A DNA stretch of 64,000 nucleotides from the NCBI RefSeq assembly GCF_030056815.1, contig NZ_JASHKR010000025.1, forward strand, positions 1 through 64,000, read 5' to 3'. Position 1 is the stretch's first letter. Each line of letters opens with the position of its first letter. The translations under genes and the position numbers were made by a program. Source of the DNA: Rhodococcus sp. IEGM 1379 (GTDB taxonomy: Bacteria > Actinomycetota > Actinomycetes > Mycobacteriales > Mycobacteriaceae). The notes under the pieces were generated by a model. That model saw nothing but the letters and a program-made list of their open reading frames with translations. It did no database searches and had not been told where the DNA came from. Shown here in pieces: positions 12,331 to 15,953 of the stretch.

Positions 12331-13323
12331 ATGAGCCAGCCACGACGGCTAGCCATGACGCTTGTAGCTGGGTTGTGTCTGACGGGGATGGGGTTCCTTG
12401 CTGTTTCCGTGTATCCAGCCATGGTTTCTGCCCAACCAGGTGTAACCGAAACCATCAGCGGAGATGACGTTGTTCCCCTTGGAGAAGTTGTCCCCCTTGC
12501 AGGCGGCAACAACACTGGTGGCGGCAACAACACTGGTGGCGGCAACAACACTGGTGGCGGCAACAACACTGGTGGCGGTAACAACGGCGGTGGCGGTAAC
12601 AACGGCGGCGGCGGTAACAACGGCGGCGGTAACGGTAATGATCATTGCCACCACCACTGCCCGACTACGACCACGCCGGTAGTGACGACGACGACCACCG
12701 CGGTAGTTACGACGACGACGACTGAGCCGGAAGTTACGACGACGACGACCGAGCCGGAAGTTACGACGACGACGACCGAGCCGGAAGTTACGACGACACC
12801 AGAGGATCCGATCGTGCCTCCGGTGACGAATGGCCCGGGCGACACGTCTTCGATCAGTTCAACTGTCTCTTCGGAATCCGAGGCGTCGACAAGTTCGGAA
12901 CAATCCGATGAACCTTCTGCTGCGGTTGTGCCTGCTGGACCGGACAACCCGCAAGGTCCGTCCGCGAATGGTGGAGGACCTGCGCCGGCACCTGCCGGCG
13001 GAGCTGACTTAGCCTCGGGTGTGACTCTTGCAGCTCCTGCGGTTTTGGCTGCACCGGCACCGATCGTTGTTCCGCCGCAACCTGTTTCGCCGAATGTTGC
13101 GGTCTCGGCTGCCGGCTCTGATCCCCAAGCTCTGCCCGTGGTCTTCACACACGGATTGCCTCCGATTCAGAATGCTGCTGCGGTGGTAGGTGGTGTCGTC
13201 GGAATGACGTTGGTTGCCGCCGGCGCGGGAGCATTGACGTTCCGAGGTGCGTCCGTGCAGAAGGCGCGGTTGGTTGCTGCACGAGCTGAATTCTTGGCTC
13301 CCCGGTCCGGAAGAGGTGTGTGA
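12331..13323 (+). CDS. Secreted Gly/Asn/Thr-repeat surface protein (unknown function)
   Basis: 330-residue exported protein. A signal peptide with an RR-containing basic N-terminus is followed by LVAGLCLTGMGFLAVSVYPA, with probable cleavage after MVSA. Next come GGGNNT repeats, a metal-ligand-like HCHHHC cluster, TEPEVTTTT repeats, a Ser/Glu then Pro/Ala-rich region, and a C-terminal hydrophobic helix (AAAVVGGVVGMTLVAAGAGA) with a basic tail. This looks like a stalked, membrane-anchored surface protein or adhesin. The ATG with GGGGAGGAAACCG upstream is chosen over an upstream one. It heads a tightly packed unit with the IrrE-like and polytopic genes. No homolog is recognised. Confidence 0.8.
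   Translation: MSQPRRLAMTLVAGLCLTGMGFLAVSVYPAMVSAQPGVTETISGDDVVPLGEVVPLAGGNNTGGGNNTGGGNNTGGGNNTGGGNNGGGGNNGGGGNNGGGNGNDHCHHHCPTTTTPVVTTTTTAVVTTTTTEPEVTTTTTEPEVTTTTTEPEVTTTPEDPIVPPVTNGPGDTSSISSTVSSESEASTSSEQSDEPSAAVVPAGPDNPQGPSANGGGPAPAPAGGADLASGVTLAAPAVLAAPAPIVVPPQPVSPNVAVSAAGSDPQALPVVFTHGLPPIQNAAAVVGGVVGMTLVAAGAGALTFRGASVQKARLVAARAEFLAPRSGRGV
12502..12637. repeat. 18-bp GGCGGCAACAACACTGGT minisatellite
   Basis: About seven imperfect copies encoding GGNNTG/GGNNGG units in the surface protein. The first copies are identical; later ones lose the Thr codon. The unit is a multiple of three, so length can vary without frameshift. Confidence 0.9.
12724..12798. repeat. 27-bp Thr-rich tandem repeat (EPEVTTTT units)
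   Basis: Nearly three copies of a 27-bp unit encoding EPEVTTTTT in the surface protein stalk. Thr-rich stretches of this kind are plausible O-mannosylation targets; a Pmt gene is present at about 23-24.5 kb. The glycosylation link is inference. Confidence 0.88.
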
Positions 13324-13326
13324 GGC

Positions 13327-13830
13327 GTGCTGACAAAAAGACGGTCGCATCGCCGAGTTCTTGCTGCAGTGGACGCTGTATGTGATGCCGCCGCGTCCTC
13401 GGAAGCTGTGACGTTGTTGACTGTTGTGGAGGCTGTTGCTCTGGAACGTGAACGACCCATCGAAATCGATTTGGATACTCCGCTCGCAACGGGCGTCTGC
13501 GGTCAGCGACGGGCGTATGACGATCATGATGTGATTGTTCTCGCGCCAGGTCTACCCAACGTCGAACGGACTCTGGCACATGAGTTGGGGCACATAGTGT
13601 TTCGGCATGAAGGTGCGGAGATTGCCGAGGCGACGCTGGAAGCCAGTGACGATTTGATCGCCTACATGCTGAGTCAGCGATCCCTTCGCCGCAACGAGCC
13701 TGTTCCGATGGACGACATTGCTGAGTGGGAAGCGGAAACTTTCGCATCGATGCTGCTCATGCGACTGAAAACGATGAGTGGCAGGGGAACACCGTTGTCG
13801 GTTCTGCGGTATGACGAGGCGATCGGATGA
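13327..13830 (+). CDS. ImmA/IrrE-family zinc metallopeptidase
   Basis: 167-residue protein with the gluzincin motif HELGH at residues 85-89 (TLAHELGHIVFRHE) and a downstream acidic helix EWEAETFASMLL, whose Glu is the likely third zinc ligand. ImmA/IrrE proteases cleave XRE-family repressors, for example ImmR of ICEBs1 and DdrO of Deinococcus, to induce regulons. Here the GTG start is three bases after the surface-protein stop, the stop overlaps the next gene by ATGA, and an XRE-type EspR-like gene faces it from downstream. This is cytosolic with no signal peptide. Substrate identity is inferred. Confidence 0.85.
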   Translation: MLTKRRSHRRVLAAVDAVCDAAASSEAVTLLTVVEAVALERERPIEIDLDTPLATGVCGQRRAYDDHDVIVLAPGLPNVERTLAHELGHIVFRHEGAEIAEATLEASDDLIAYMLSQRSLRRNEPVPMDDIAEWEAETFASMLLMRLKTMSGRGTPLSVLRYDEAIG

Positions 13831-14840
13831 TCGCTTGGGCTATTGCCTTGGTGGTGTGGATTGCAGCTGGTGCAAGACTCGGTCGAGTGGTGGCGAGGGC
13901 GGCCACTCCGCTGCGCACGGCGATGGTGATCGTCGGCTTCTGTGTTGCCTTGATGGCTACCGTGTTGGTTCCCGGCGTGTGGGACATCGTCGAGCGCGTT
14001 GCCCCTGATCAGCATTTTTCGGCGATGGTTGTTGTCGTGCTGTGGGTTTTCTTGTCTGCGGCCAGTGCCGTCGGCGCAGTTTCTGCGTGGCCGGTGATGA
14101 CACGTTCGGCGATGCGAGGCATTGCGATCGTGTTGTATACGGTCGGCCTGTTGGTCTCCATCGCGGTGGGATTCGGCTATCCGATCCCGGCTTTGGTGTT
14201 TGTGACCATCGCATTGTCGTTGGTGATCTCGACTGGGCTCAGGCATGTGGCGTGGGCACCGCTGGGGCGTGGAATCGCATTGATCGTGCTGGGCTCGACA
14301 ACGCTCTTGATTGTTGTCGTGGTCATGTTGGTCGAAGCGATTCGTGGAACGAATTCACTCGAATCAGGCATCTGGACCGGCACCGGCGTGGGGTTTGTGT
14401 CAGCAGCCAGTGTGTTTATCGCATTGGGCATTACGTGGGTGTTGGCCGAGACGTGGGTGCGCGCAAGGTTGGATCTGATGCGGCTGCGTCGTATGCACGA
14501 ACTGCTGGTGAAGCGTTTTCCCGAGGTTGTTGATGCCGACAGTGCTGCCACTACTTCCGTTCTGCGAGCGTCTGATGTGATTGCGCAGATCATGGATGCG
14601 ATGTACATCCAGGCAGGTGCGGGCATGTTCGATGTCGGCGGGCGCGAGCCTCCGCGGTCGATTGCATCGCATTCAGGGATCTTGGCAGGGTGGATCGAGG
14701 ATCCACTCGGTTCGGATGTTCTTGATACCCGGTGGATTGCACCCCCGGGCGGTATGTCTGCCCGGAGATGGGTTTTGGTTGTGGCTCGGGATCATGAGAA
14801 GTTTCGAAGTGATGTGAATACGACAAAAGCAGGTCGATAA
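13827..14840 (+). CDS. Polytopic membrane protein, MAB_1171c/DUF6545-like
   Basis: 337 residues with about seven TM helices in the first 210 (MIAWAIALVVWIAAGA onward). A cytoplasmic C-terminal domain contains RARLDLMRLRRMHELLVKRFPEVV and a predicted helical segment. This layout and its association with ImmA/IrrE and XRE genes recall the MAB_1171c (DUF6545) family of actinobacteria, described only as putative transporters. It starts in an ATGA overlap with the peptidase gene, implying coupled translation and a shared pathway. It might sense a signal for the protease; no experimental basis is known to me. Confidence 0.7.
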   Translation: MIAWAIALVVWIAAGARLGRVVARAATPLRTAMVIVGFCVALMATVLVPGVWDIVERVAPDQHFSAMVVVVLWVFLSAASAVGAVSAWPVMTRSAMRGIAIVLYTVGLLVSIAVGFGYPIPALVFVTIALSLVISTGLRHVAWAPLGRGIALIVLGSTTLLIVVVVMLVEAIRGTNSLESGIWTGTGVGFVSAASVFIALGITWVLAETWVRARLDLMRLRRMHELLVKRFPEVVDADSAATTSVLRASDVIAQIMDAMYIQAGAGMFDVGGREPPRSIASHSGILAGWIEDPLGSDVLDTRWIAPPGGMSARRWVLVVARDHEKFRSDVNTTKAGR

Positions 14841-14857
14841 TTACTGATCGACCTGCT
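14828..14857. terminator. Bidirectional hairpin between the convergent membrane-protein and EspR-like genes
   Basis: Perfect 11-bp arms AGCAGGTCGAT / ATCGACCTGCT. The left arm includes the last codons and stop of the rightward gene. Confidence 0.8.
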
Positions 14858-14888
14858 CAGTGTCGTCCCGGAAGTTCCGAGCCCTCAG

Positions 14889-15305
14889 TCAGCGTGATGC
14901 GTCTGGTGGAACTTCAGGCAGTCCTTCACTTGCGCGAAGCTTCTCGGCCATCGTCGTGAGAAGGTTCTGCGATTCTTCGGACAGGTCGAATGCTCGGCTC
15001 GACAGTCGACGCAGACCGTAGCCCTGGAGCTGCGCGAGCAGTTCGAGGTCGTGGTCGATCTTCGCAGCGTAGATGTCGTTGAAGAAGTAGTCCGGCTTCA
15101 CCTTGAAGAAGCGTGCAAAAGCGGCGACAGTCTCGTCCGATGGGTTTGTGCGCTGTCCCGATCGGAGCTGTGAGATGTACGGCTTGGAAATCTGGTGGCC
15201 GTCCTCGATCAACGCGGAGGCGACCTCAGCGTTGGTGTGAGGCTTGCGCCCCGGAGGATGGACACTGTCGAACAGTTTGTTCAATCGTTCTGCAAAGTCA
15301 GCCAT
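14889..15305 (-). CDS. EspR-like XRE-family DNA-binding protein
   Basis: 138 residues closely resembling mycobacterial EspR over its whole length, from memory. The N-terminus is FAERLNKLFDSVHPPGRKPH, then the helix-turn-helix region TNAEVASALIEDG..ISKPYISQLRSGQRTNPS, then FFKVKPDYFF and a C-terminal dimerisation helix region (GLRRLSSRAFDLSEESQ). M. tuberculosis EspR is a nucleoid-associated regulator of ESX-1 and cell-wall genes. The ATG giving MADFAERL is the family start; the open frame upstream is non-coding. It is convergent with the IrrE-like unit and preceded by a 490-bp regulatory region. Paralog or ortholog status cannot be settled here. Confidence 0.87.
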   Translation of the reverse strand: MADFAERLNKLFDSVHPPGRKPHTNAEVASALIEDGHQISKPYISQLRSGQRTNPSDETVAAFARFFKVKPDYFFNDIYAAKIDHDLELLAQLQGYGLRRLSSRAFDLSEESQNLLTTMAEKLRASEGLPEVPPDASR

Positions 15306-15797
15306 TGTGAACCGCCCCGTTATCCTCTCTAGCCAGCAATTGTTCTTCCAGCGAATCCAACGATAACACGCGGATAACCGATTGGTAGCTCGCTGTAGTC
15401 CGTTTAGTGGACGAATTCTTGAAGGAGGGCTGCTCGCTTTGTGATGGTTGGTGCCGGTTCCGTTAGTGGCCGAGGCAATTCTTGTCGCGACTGCTATCGA
15501 AATTGGCCCGAGTGCGAGGACATCCTCAACCTTCCCGCTGCGGGGTATTGTCACCGTAACGAACCGTTTGCCCGTTTTGGTCACAGTAGCTAAACATTAA
15601 CCCGGTTTTGTAATTCGCCCGAGGCTGAGAAACTGCAGTTCAGGCCACTGTCGGCTCATGTTCATGTTGTGACGTGGGTTATATGGAGGGCTGGCTTGTC
15701 ACTGGTCGTGATGTGCGCCACTTTGTGTGAGGTTCGCGCAGTGTCAACTGCGGCGCAGGTGCTGGCCAAGGCGCGCTGAGCGGTGCAGAATTGTGAT
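15306..15797. other. Long regulatory intergenic region upstream of the EspR-like gene
   Basis: 492 bp with no convincing ORF. It is lower in GC than its surroundings. It holds ATAAC-rich direct repeats near the EspR-like start (GATAACACGCGGATAACC) and two longer imperfect repeats listed separately. An EspR-type nucleoid protein usually binds its own promoter at several sites, so these are candidates. Confidence 0.6.
15400..15484. repeat. Pair of imperfect direct repeats, candidate EspR-like sites
   Basis: CCGTTTAGTGGACGAATTCT near 15400 and a related CCGTTAGTGGCCGAGGCAAT with the same downstream TTCTTG near 15460, about 60 bp apart (near six helical turns). The regulatory role is inferred. 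Confidence 0.5.
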
Positions 15798-15953
15798 ATG
15801 AAACACACTGTGAGTGACGAGGAATTGCGCCGCGCCATCCGTGCTCTCCAGGACCGCGCACTCGATGCACGCAAACGAGGTGACGGAGCTGCGGCGGAAG
15901 CGATCGAGCGCACCATGCGTGACTATCAAGAGCAGATGGCGCAACGCCTGTAG
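15798..15953 (+). CDS. Small charged helical protein (51 aa)
   Basis: ATG-started ORF of 51 residues, rich in Arg, Glu, Asp and Ala, predicted almost entirely alpha-helical. It begins MKHTVSDEELRRAIRALQDR, continues with ALDARKRGDGAAAEAIER and ends YQEQMAQRL. The ribosome site is weak. It could be a small regulatory or chaperone-like helix-hairpin protein; no family is recognised. The amphipathic heptad-like composition makes it more credible than a random ORF. Confidence 0.55.
   Translation: MKHTVSDEELRRAIRALQDRALDARKRGDGAAAEAIERTMRDYQEQMAQRL

What the first reader, a model, noticed from the sequence alone, without database searches (positions are those of the whole stretch)
12331..15305. 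Candidate regulated-proteolysis module: surface-repeat protein, ImmA/IrrE protease, polytopic protein and EspR-like regulator
Seen: three tightly coupled rightward genes (secreted repeat protein, HELGH metallopeptidase with GTG start 3 bp after the previous stop, membrane protein with ATGA overlap) face an EspR-like XRE-family regulator across a terminator. Known: ImmA/IrrE proteases cleave XRE repressors; EspR controls cell-surface genes in M. tuberculosis. Inferred: the protease may cut or antagonise the EspR-like protein, with the membrane protein as sensor, controlling the surface protein. This specific combination is not one I recognise as described. The block is absent from the matching mycobacterial position.
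Basis: partly seen in the sequence, partly recalled or inferred. Interest (0 to 1): 0.88.

Follow-up and report, generated by a model that had tools for sequence, protein, structure and literature searches.

The report
EspR's conserved partner protease module
Next to the gene for a DNA-binding regulator related to tuberculosis EspR sit three genes, for a membrane-anchored surface protein, a predicted zinc protease and a seven-helix membrane protein, and this neighbourhood recurs in Rhodococcus, Nocardia and probably many mycobacteria, which suggests that EspR-type regulators are often controlled by a dedicated protease that responds to the cell surface.

Summary
The genes are as described. A single-pass surface protein, an ImmA/IrrE-type peptidase and a seven-helix membrane protein form a rightward operon facing an EspR homologue. 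Peptidase, membrane protein and convergent EspR homologue lie together in 79 of 80 named relatives; the other is cut by a contig end. In 151 family genomes, 36 of 36 close peptidase rows lie within 3 kb of an EspR homologue, whereas 25 of the 61 closest EspR rows have no listed peptidase nearby. In a genus I infer to be Mycobacterium, 170 of 297 genomes have the peptidase; of 150 listed copies, 140 lie 1.1-1.35 kb from EspR, tail to tail. So the block is not absent from mycobacteria; it sits at espR's own locus. In 13 loci with EspR but no peptidase I found no convincing remnant. Best reading: a membrane-gated M78 protease that cuts or inactivates EspR. Cleavage is inferred, not shown. No paper linking EspR to an M78 peptidase appeared in my listings (some capped). 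New variant of a known kind; high interest.

The parts
12331..13323 (+). Surface protein (330 aa): signal peptide, low-complexity extracellular region, one C-terminal transmembrane helix, basic 28-residue cytosolic tail
   Evidence: a protein with such a helix and tail found by rule in 64 of 80 relatives
12502..12621 (+). 18-bp tandem repeat, 6.7 copies (GGNNTG-type peptide repeat)
12662..12797 (+). 27-bp tandem repeat, 5.2 copies (TTTTEPEV-type peptide repeat)
13180..13320 (+). Transmembrane helix (aa 284-302) and cytosolic tail of the surface protein; the part that stays alike among relatives
13327..13830 (+). M78 (ImmA/IrrE-type) metallopeptidase, 167 aa
   Evidence: PF06114 25.2 bits above cut-off 22; AlphaFold model helix-helix-three strands-helices, pLDDT 79.8, low confidence at 101-105 and 154-164
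13579..13593 (+). HELGH zinc-binding motif (aa 85-89)
   Evidence: H85, E86, H89 invariant in 22 of 22 and 40 of 40 (set found partly by motif)
13723..13737 (+). EWEAE motif (aa 133-137), candidate third zinc ligand
   Evidence: invariant in 22 of 22 and 40 of 40 (set found partly by motif)
13827..14840 (+). Seven-helix membrane protein, 337 aa, with a long helix (aa 186-230) running into a helical C-terminal domain
   Evidence: seven transmembrane stretches by hydropathy, model pLDDT 84.1, alignment; distant, unsure kin of the MAB_1171c family
14820..14866 (.). Hairpin between the convergent genes; overlaps the 3' end of the membrane-protein gene
   Evidence: -25.8 kcal/mol, z -5.3, 0 of 200 shuffles as good
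14889..15305 (-). EspR-family helix-turn-helix regulator, 138 aa
   Evidence: PDB EspR E 2.3e-35; HTH_3 28.2 bits; tree
15306..15410 (-). Upstream region of the EspR-like gene, strongly conserved in close relatives; likely its promoter and control region (extent approximate)
   Evidence: alignment of six Rhodococcus loci

Best explanation
The four genes are one regulatory unit for an EspR-type regulator. The surface protein spans from the cell wall to the cytosol through one helix; its extracellular part varies while its helix and tail stay alike. Together with the seven-helix membrane protein it probably senses the state of the envelope. On a signal they release or activate the cytosolic M78 peptidase, which cuts the EspR homologue or otherwise inactivates it, changing expression of envelope genes, probably including the surface-protein operon. 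This is the ImmA/ImmR principle with a membrane input and a global nucleoid-type regulator as output. Shown here: gene content, intact zinc motif, membrane topology by prediction, and conserved linkage. Inferred: sensing, activation, cleavage and its effect.
For: Linkage: 79 of 80 named loci carry the peptidase, membrane protein and a convergent EspR homologue (in L109 only 29 EspR residues were aligned), in several genomic settings: moeA and/or SDR in 12, P450 and/or thiolase in 61, none of these in 7 of the 80; an Rv3850-like neighbour marks 9 of 22 further loci, as many as there are probable mycobacterial ones in that call. In 151 genomes all 36 close peptidase rows (E up to 1e-30) have an EspR-family gene within 3 kb: 31 convergent, 5 tandem. 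In L140 the order is EspR-surface-peptidase-membrane on one strand. In the probable mycobacteria 140 of 150 listed peptidase rows have EspR convergent at 1100-1354 nt; 9 have their EspR row outside the visible list, and 1 has it on another contig. Dependence is one-sided: 25 of the 61 closest EspR rows (E up to 2e-34; a few are second copies in one genome) have no listed peptidase within 4.5 kb. In 13 such loci no remnant was found; the one hit was at E 0.25. Precedent: M78 peptidases ImmA, IrrE and CapP cleave HTH repressors ImmR, DdrO and CapH (PMC10233336, passages). Removal of 10 C-terminal residues of EspR abolishes dimerisation and activation but not DNA binding (PMC3315491, passages), so one cut could switch it off. 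EspR sites lie mostly near cell-wall genes (same paper).
Against: No cleavage, binding or expression data exist. Classical ImmR-ImmA pairs are tandem; here most are convergent. EspR persists without the module in many genomes, so the module is not needed for EspR to work. EspR positions kept in peptidase-bearing genomes are mostly kept without the peptidase too, so no cleavage or contact site stands out (only 4 and 8 peptidase-free sequences). The published EspR consensus does not occur upstream of either gene in this window. The surface protein was not recovered by rule in 16 of 80 loci, 12 of which have under 410 bp upstream of the peptidase match, and in 8 of 25 probable mycobacterial loci. 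The mycobacterial peptidase that I scanned is below the Pfam cut-off (16.3 of 22 bits). Of 84 peptidase rows, 21 weaker ones have no listed EspR-family gene nearby. No structure search could be run.
Confidence: 0.5

Rival explanations
1. The peptidase acts on the surface or membrane protein, not on EspR. It trims the conserved cytosolic tail of the surface protein, or is anchored by it; EspR merely regulates the operon as a local transcription factor.
For: The tail and transmembrane helix are the part of the surface protein that stays alike; surface gene, peptidase and membrane protein are tightly packed (3 bp gap and ATGA overlap in the window; the same overlap in 61 of 79 relatives, my count, where starts were chosen by rule); EspR consensus enriched upstream of the surface gene: 31 sites in 52 regions (23 regions with at least one) against a shuffle mean of 5.0, maximum 12 of 200; in 32 representatives 18 against 3.06, 0 of 500.
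Against: Related accessory sets keep peptidase, membrane protein and EspR-like gene; in plasmid loci L194 and L195 the gene upstream of the peptidase is on the other strand, and an extra membrane protein (annotated PAP2 family in L194 and L196) is added, so the constant partner is the regulator. The M78 substrates named in PMC10233336 are HTH regulators. The window itself has no EspR consensus site there.
Confidence: 0.25
2. Non-proteolytic control: the peptidase and the seven-helix protein bind and sequester EspR at the membrane, with peptidase activity needed only for turnover of the complex.
For: EspR is under far stronger constraint than its partners (100% against 96% and 83% in L036; 96% against 77% and 51% in L041), as expected for an abundant global protein that is unlikely to be destroyed wholesale; the long helix and C-terminal domain of the membrane protein offer a docking surface.
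Against: The catalytic motif is invariant in 22 of 22 and 40 of 40 (partly by selection), so activity is probably needed for something.
Confidence: 0.13
3. A defence or addiction module of CapH/CapP type, with the membrane protein as toxic effector.
For: Weak PADLOC matches: peptidase to capP (5e-7), EspR-like protein to capH (1e-4); related sets on plasmids.
Confidence: 0.05
4. Neighbours by chance or passive hitch-hiking.
For: None beyond the lack of experiments.
Against: 36 of 36 and 140 of 150 adjacency, several genomic settings, two orientations.
Confidence: 0.02

Closest known systems
ImmR-ImmA of ICEBs1 and similar elements (also DdrO-IrrE of Deinococcus)
   Same: HTH regulator encoded beside an M78 peptidase with HEXXH motif
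   Different: Here mostly convergent, with a seven-helix membrane protein and a surface protein; the regulator is of EspR type; chromosomal in a recurring setting
CapH-CapP of CBASS
   Same: M78 peptidase with an HTH partner; weak PADLOC matches
   Different: No CBASS genes recognised among the neighbours read; CapP is stimulated by ssDNA (PMC10233336, passages), whereas the partners here are membrane proteins
EspR of Mycobacterium tuberculosis (PDB 3QF3, 3R1F, 4NDW)
   Same: Alignable over 127 residues, E 2.3e-35
   Different: M. tuberculosis espR is, from memory, followed directly by Rv3850 without the block; no peptidase partner of EspR came up in my searches
MAB_1171c family putative transporter (NF042915; Pfam DUF6545)
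   Same: In L157, L159 and L170 such membrane proteins (7, 5 and 4 helices by my simple scale) lie directly behind an HTH gene and a HEXXH-bearing protein
   Different: The window protein scores 18.1 bits against a cut-off of 100; profile comparison gives E 1.5e-4 at only 51% probability; in five other loci of this family (L158, L160, L171-L173) I saw no HEXXH neighbour

Membership tests
M78 (ImmA/IrrE) peptidases | Pfam PF06114 above gathering score | tested here: met
   25.2 bits, cut-off 22; the mycobacterial homologue only 16.3 bits, below cut-off, and the L157 one no match
M78 (ImmA/IrrE) peptidases | HEXXH plus a downstream acidic zinc ligand | tested here: met
   invariant in 22 of 22 and 40 of 40 (set found partly by these motifs); ligand role itself inferred
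M78 (ImmA/IrrE) peptidases | Fold of solved members | tested here: inconclusive
M78 (ImmA/IrrE) peptidases | Cleaves an adjacent HTH regulator | not testable with these tools
   needs bench work
EspR family | Full-length homology to EspR including the C-terminal domain | tested here: met
   residues 3-129 aligned to 3QF3, E 2.3e-35; tree
EspR family | Nucleoid-type binding and dimerisation | not testable with these tools
   known for M. tuberculosis EspR (PMC3315491, passages)
MAB_1171c family (NF042915) | Score over curated cut-off of 100 bits | tested here: not met
   18.1 bits; mycobacterial counterpart 34.8 bits
ImmR-ImmA two-gene module | Tandem regulator-peptidase pair on a mobile element | tested here: not met
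   convergent in a chromosomal setting shared with relatives; tandem in 11 of 84 peptidase rows
CBASS CapH-CapP | Linked cyclase and effector | tested here: inconclusive
   three window proteins scanned against PADLOC: only weak capP, capH, RmrA and PDC-M69B matches; the neighbours were not scanned

The most novel reading that the evidence does not exclude
EspR, known as a mycobacterial virulence regulator and nucleoid protein, descends from the regulator half of an actinobacterial protease-gated envelope-signalling module (EspR-type regulator, M78 peptidase, seven-helix membrane protein, plus a surface or PAP2-type protein). In many mycobacteria, Nocardia and Rhodococcus it is still under the control of its peptidase; lineages without the block, M. 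tuberculosis among them by recall, carry an orphaned EspR set free from that control.
Probability: 0.4. Interest if true: 0.9.

Novelty: new variant of a known kind. Interest (0 to 1): 0.8.

Why it matters
How EspR activity is set is open: a proposed control by secretion was not confirmed, and EspR protein and espR mRNA levels run opposite to each other in M. tuberculosis (PMC3315491, passages). A dedicated peptidase partner, present in 170 of 297 sampled genomes of a genus inferred to be Mycobacterium, would give a direct, testable answer for those species and would make block-free lineages natural comparison cases. It would also extend M78 control from DNA-damage and mobile-element switches to envelope sensing through membrane partners.

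Tried and rejected
Cleavage-site hunt: comparing EspR positions in peptidase-bearing (79 and 25) and peptidase-free (4 and 8) sequences gave no convincing site. Shared promoter motif: by eye none between the surface-gene and EspR upstream regions of six Rhodococcus loci. The EspR consensus was enriched upstream of the surface gene (52 regions = the window and 51 of 80 loci whose start could be set by rule), but four of 839 other permutations of the word were as frequent or more so, and it is missing in the window. It is not enriched upstream of EspR in the same 52 loci (0.25 per kb against 0.28 overall). Extracellular cysteine pairs in the surface protein: present in some loci, not general, dropped. 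PDB by sequence for the peptidase: only chance matches. Plasmid origin of the window copy: 12 plasmid records matched, none over 80% of the query; 11 are 34-41% identical, and one Nocardia farcinica record filed as a plasmid 64%. MAB_1171c family across the phylum: 12 of 149 genomes matched, 3 over the cut-off; of seven loci from that one genus only L159 and L170 showed a HEXXH neighbour in my gene calls. Literature: listings; passages of PMC8707978, PMC11898584, PMC10233336, PMC13354803, PMC3315491. Listings were capped (20 of 2,030; 12 of 105; 12 of 4,951; 6 of 12), and searches were mostly noise. The library lacks most subscription papers, so absence there is weak.
Full report
What is there. 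The window is a Rhodococcus chromosome stretch; its closest named relative, Rhodococcus sp. ARC_M6 (L035), has a 99% identical peptidase, 97% membrane protein and 100% EspR-like protein. Upstream lie moeA-, rimJ- and Rv0996-like genes (names recalled) and a tRNA-Ala. The surface gene (12331-13323), peptidase gene (13327-13830) and membrane-protein gene (13827-14840) form one tight run. The EspR-like gene (14889-15305) faces it across a hairpin. Substitutions against three relatives sit mostly at third codon positions in the peptidase, membrane-protein and EspR-like genes, so these three are under purifying selection, EspR most strongly.

The peptidase. It passes the Pfam M78 cut-off narrowly. 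HELGH (as H85, E86, H89) and the downstream EWEAE are invariant in 22 of 22 aligned sequences from whole-protein search and in 40 of 40 of a second set that had been found partly by those motifs. The model, mean pLDDT 79.8, has two helices, three strands and helices carrying the motifs, as I recall for this family. A sequence search of the PDB found no true relative, and the structure search was never accepted because the machine was busy.

The membrane protein. Hydropathy gives seven transmembrane stretches. The model, pLDDT 84.1, has a 45-residue helix (186-230) that leads from the last of them into a less certain helical C-terminal domain. Profile comparison ties it to the mycobacterial counterpart (E 2e-26) and to plasmid-type counterparts (E 8e-22), and only weakly to MAB_1171c-type proteins (E 1.5e-4, probability 51%). 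It fails the MAB_1171c cut-off.

The surface protein. In relatives the extracellular part differs in sequence and length even between near relatives: 345 to 378 aa in four R. erythropolis-type loci (L037-L040), 423 to 519 aa in five N. cyriacigeorgica loci (starts set by rule). The last helix and the tail stay alike. My rule found it in 64 of 80 loci, some of them fragments at contig ends; 12 of the 16 misses have under 410 bp upstream of the peptidase match. In 25 probable mycobacterial loci 17 had the related tail by the rule, one further hit (L119) was spurious, and seven were not found.

The regulator. It aligns with M. tuberculosis EspR over 127 residues (E 2.3e-35). In a tree of 54 EspR-family sequences it falls in the Nocardiaceae branch, apart from but near the probable mycobacterial EspR branch; deep joins are weak. 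Two further EspR-like genes of the same genome, on contigs 201 and 230, branch inside the Nocardiaceae group on long branches and have no HEXXH gene within the 1.5 kb read on each side.

Linkage in named genomes. One scan of the species-genome collection found 141 relatives, of which the best 80 were kept. All 80 have the peptidase by selection; 79 have the membrane protein and the EspR homologue on the opposite strand behind it; the last, L111, ends at a contig edge. In L109 only 29 residues of the EspR match were aligned. Settings differ: moeA and/or SDR in 12, P450 and/or thiolase in 61, none of these in 7.

Linkage without that bias. In 151 genomes of the family, 36 of 36 close peptidase rows (E up to 1e-30) have an EspR-family gene within 3 kb: 31 convergent, 5 tandem. 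Of all 84 peptidase rows, 52 are convergent, 11 tandem and 21 have none listed within 4.5 kb; the EspR list was cut at 150 rows. Conversely, of the 61 closest EspR rows (E up to 2e-34; a few are second copies in one genome) 25 have no listed peptidase nearby. Thirteen loci without the peptidase, 4 mycobacterial and 9 Nocardiaceae-type, showed no remnant; the only hit was a 35-residue one at E 0.25. Simple reading: the block depends on EspR, EspR does not depend on the block, and peptidase and membrane protein are gained or lost together.

Mycobacteria. The genus of handle G052 is Mycobacterium by inference: its EspR matches M. tuberculosis EspR at E 1e-67 over 130 residues, a SodA near espR in L122 best matches PDB 1GN3, 1GN4 and 1IDS (tuberculosis origin recalled), and the gene order resembles sodA to ethA of M. 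tuberculosis (order recalled). There the peptidase occurs in 170 of 297 genomes (E up to 1e-10) and EspR in 291 of 297 (E up to 1e-30). Of 150 listed peptidase rows, 140 have EspR convergent at 1100-1354 nt, 9 have their EspR outside the listed part and 1 has it on another contig. The gap fits the membrane-protein gene, which I saw directly in 5 of 5 loci examined for it (L118-L122). So more than half of the sampled genomes carry the peptidase, and where it could be checked it lies at the espR locus.

Wider family. Related sets occur elsewhere: peptidase, membrane protein and an extra membrane protein facing an EspR-like gene on two Rhodococcus plasmids and a Tomitella plasmid. The extra protein is annotated PAP2 family in two of the three; the one scanned scores 25.8 bits, just under the PAP2 cut-off of 27.2. 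In tandem, an EspR-like gene, a HEXXH protein and a MAB_1171c-type protein follow each other in L157 and L159, and with a weaker regulator match in L170. Against a general rule: five other MAB_1171c-type loci of the L159 genus (L158, L160, L171-L173) showed no HEXXH neighbour. The EspR profile used for these matches had been extended by iteration, so weak members lean on it.

Mechanism. Established: M78 peptidases ImmA, IrrE and CapP cleave HTH regulators ImmR, DdrO and CapH (PMC10233336, passages). M. tuberculosis EspR binds mostly near cell-wall genes, recognises TTTGC[TC][GA], and loses dimerisation and activation but not DNA binding when its last 10 residues are removed (PMC3315491, passages). 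From this I infer that the peptidase inactivates the EspR homologue on a signal passed through the two membrane proteins. Feedback on the surface gene is suggested by the consensus: 31 sites in 52 upstream regions (23 with at least one) against a shuffle mean of 5.0 and, in 32 representatives, 18 against 3.06 with 0 of 500 shuffles as high. But the window has none, upstream of EspR in the same loci there is no enrichment, and four other permutations of the word scored as high or higher. In the probable mycobacteria the consensus is dense upstream of espR itself (32 sites in 6,300 nt, that is 21 of 25 loci, 5.08 per kb against 0.52), in line with the published binding of EspR at its own promoter.

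Novelty. Among my searches no listed paper links EspR with an M78 peptidase (listings partly capped). One paper mentions MAB_1171c, whose knockout lowered biofilm by about half (PMC8707978, passages); none mentions DUF6545. The library is open-access only. The principle (peptidase plus HTH regulator) is known; the membrane partners, the convergent arrangement and EspR as partner make it a new variant.

Verdict. Observation confirmed; interpretation partly supported and broader than proposed; cleavage remains to be shown.

Noticed in passing
15798-15953: A 51-codon ORF divergent from the EspR-like gene; ORFs with a similar C-terminus (YQ-x-x-M type ending) lie beside EspR in L131, L135, L136 and L137, so it is probably a real small gene.
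   Followed up: partly
L194, L195, L196: Plasmid-borne peptidase, membrane protein and extra (PAP2-type) membrane protein facing an EspR-like gene; PorA-like and DD-endopeptidase genes near it in L194, cutinase in L195.
   Followed up: partly
L159:184-3265, L170, L157:6870-9629: Tandem HTH, HEXXH protein and MAB_1171c-type protein, in L159 followed by a further 5-helix protein; suggests an old actinobacterial cassette, though five sister loci lack the HEXXH neighbour.
   Followed up: partly
L061, L062, L063, L065, L067, L074, L075, L086, L088, L100, L103, L110: Twelve Nocardia contigs break within about 400 bp upstream of the peptidase match, probably because the repeat-rich surface gene defeats short-read assembly.
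   Followed up: no
12502-12797 and L035:3-689: Repeat number of the surface gene appears to differ between the window and its close relative L035, and length differs among R. erythropolis-type and N. cyriacigeorgica loci: likely size variation at the cell surface.
   Followed up: partly
upstream of surface genes, 52 regions: Words of type GTTTRCY are even more frequent than the EspR consensus (49 sites in 34 of 52 regions); possibly the site of another regulator.
   Followed up: no
L002, L003 (contigs 201 and 230 of the same genome): Two extra EspR-like genes without a HEXXH gene in the 1.5 kb on either side, 56% and 50% identical to the window copy.
   Followed up: partly
L041-L045: In R. opacus-type loci 1.5-1.9 kb separate the membrane-protein gene from EspR; content not examined.
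   Followed up: no
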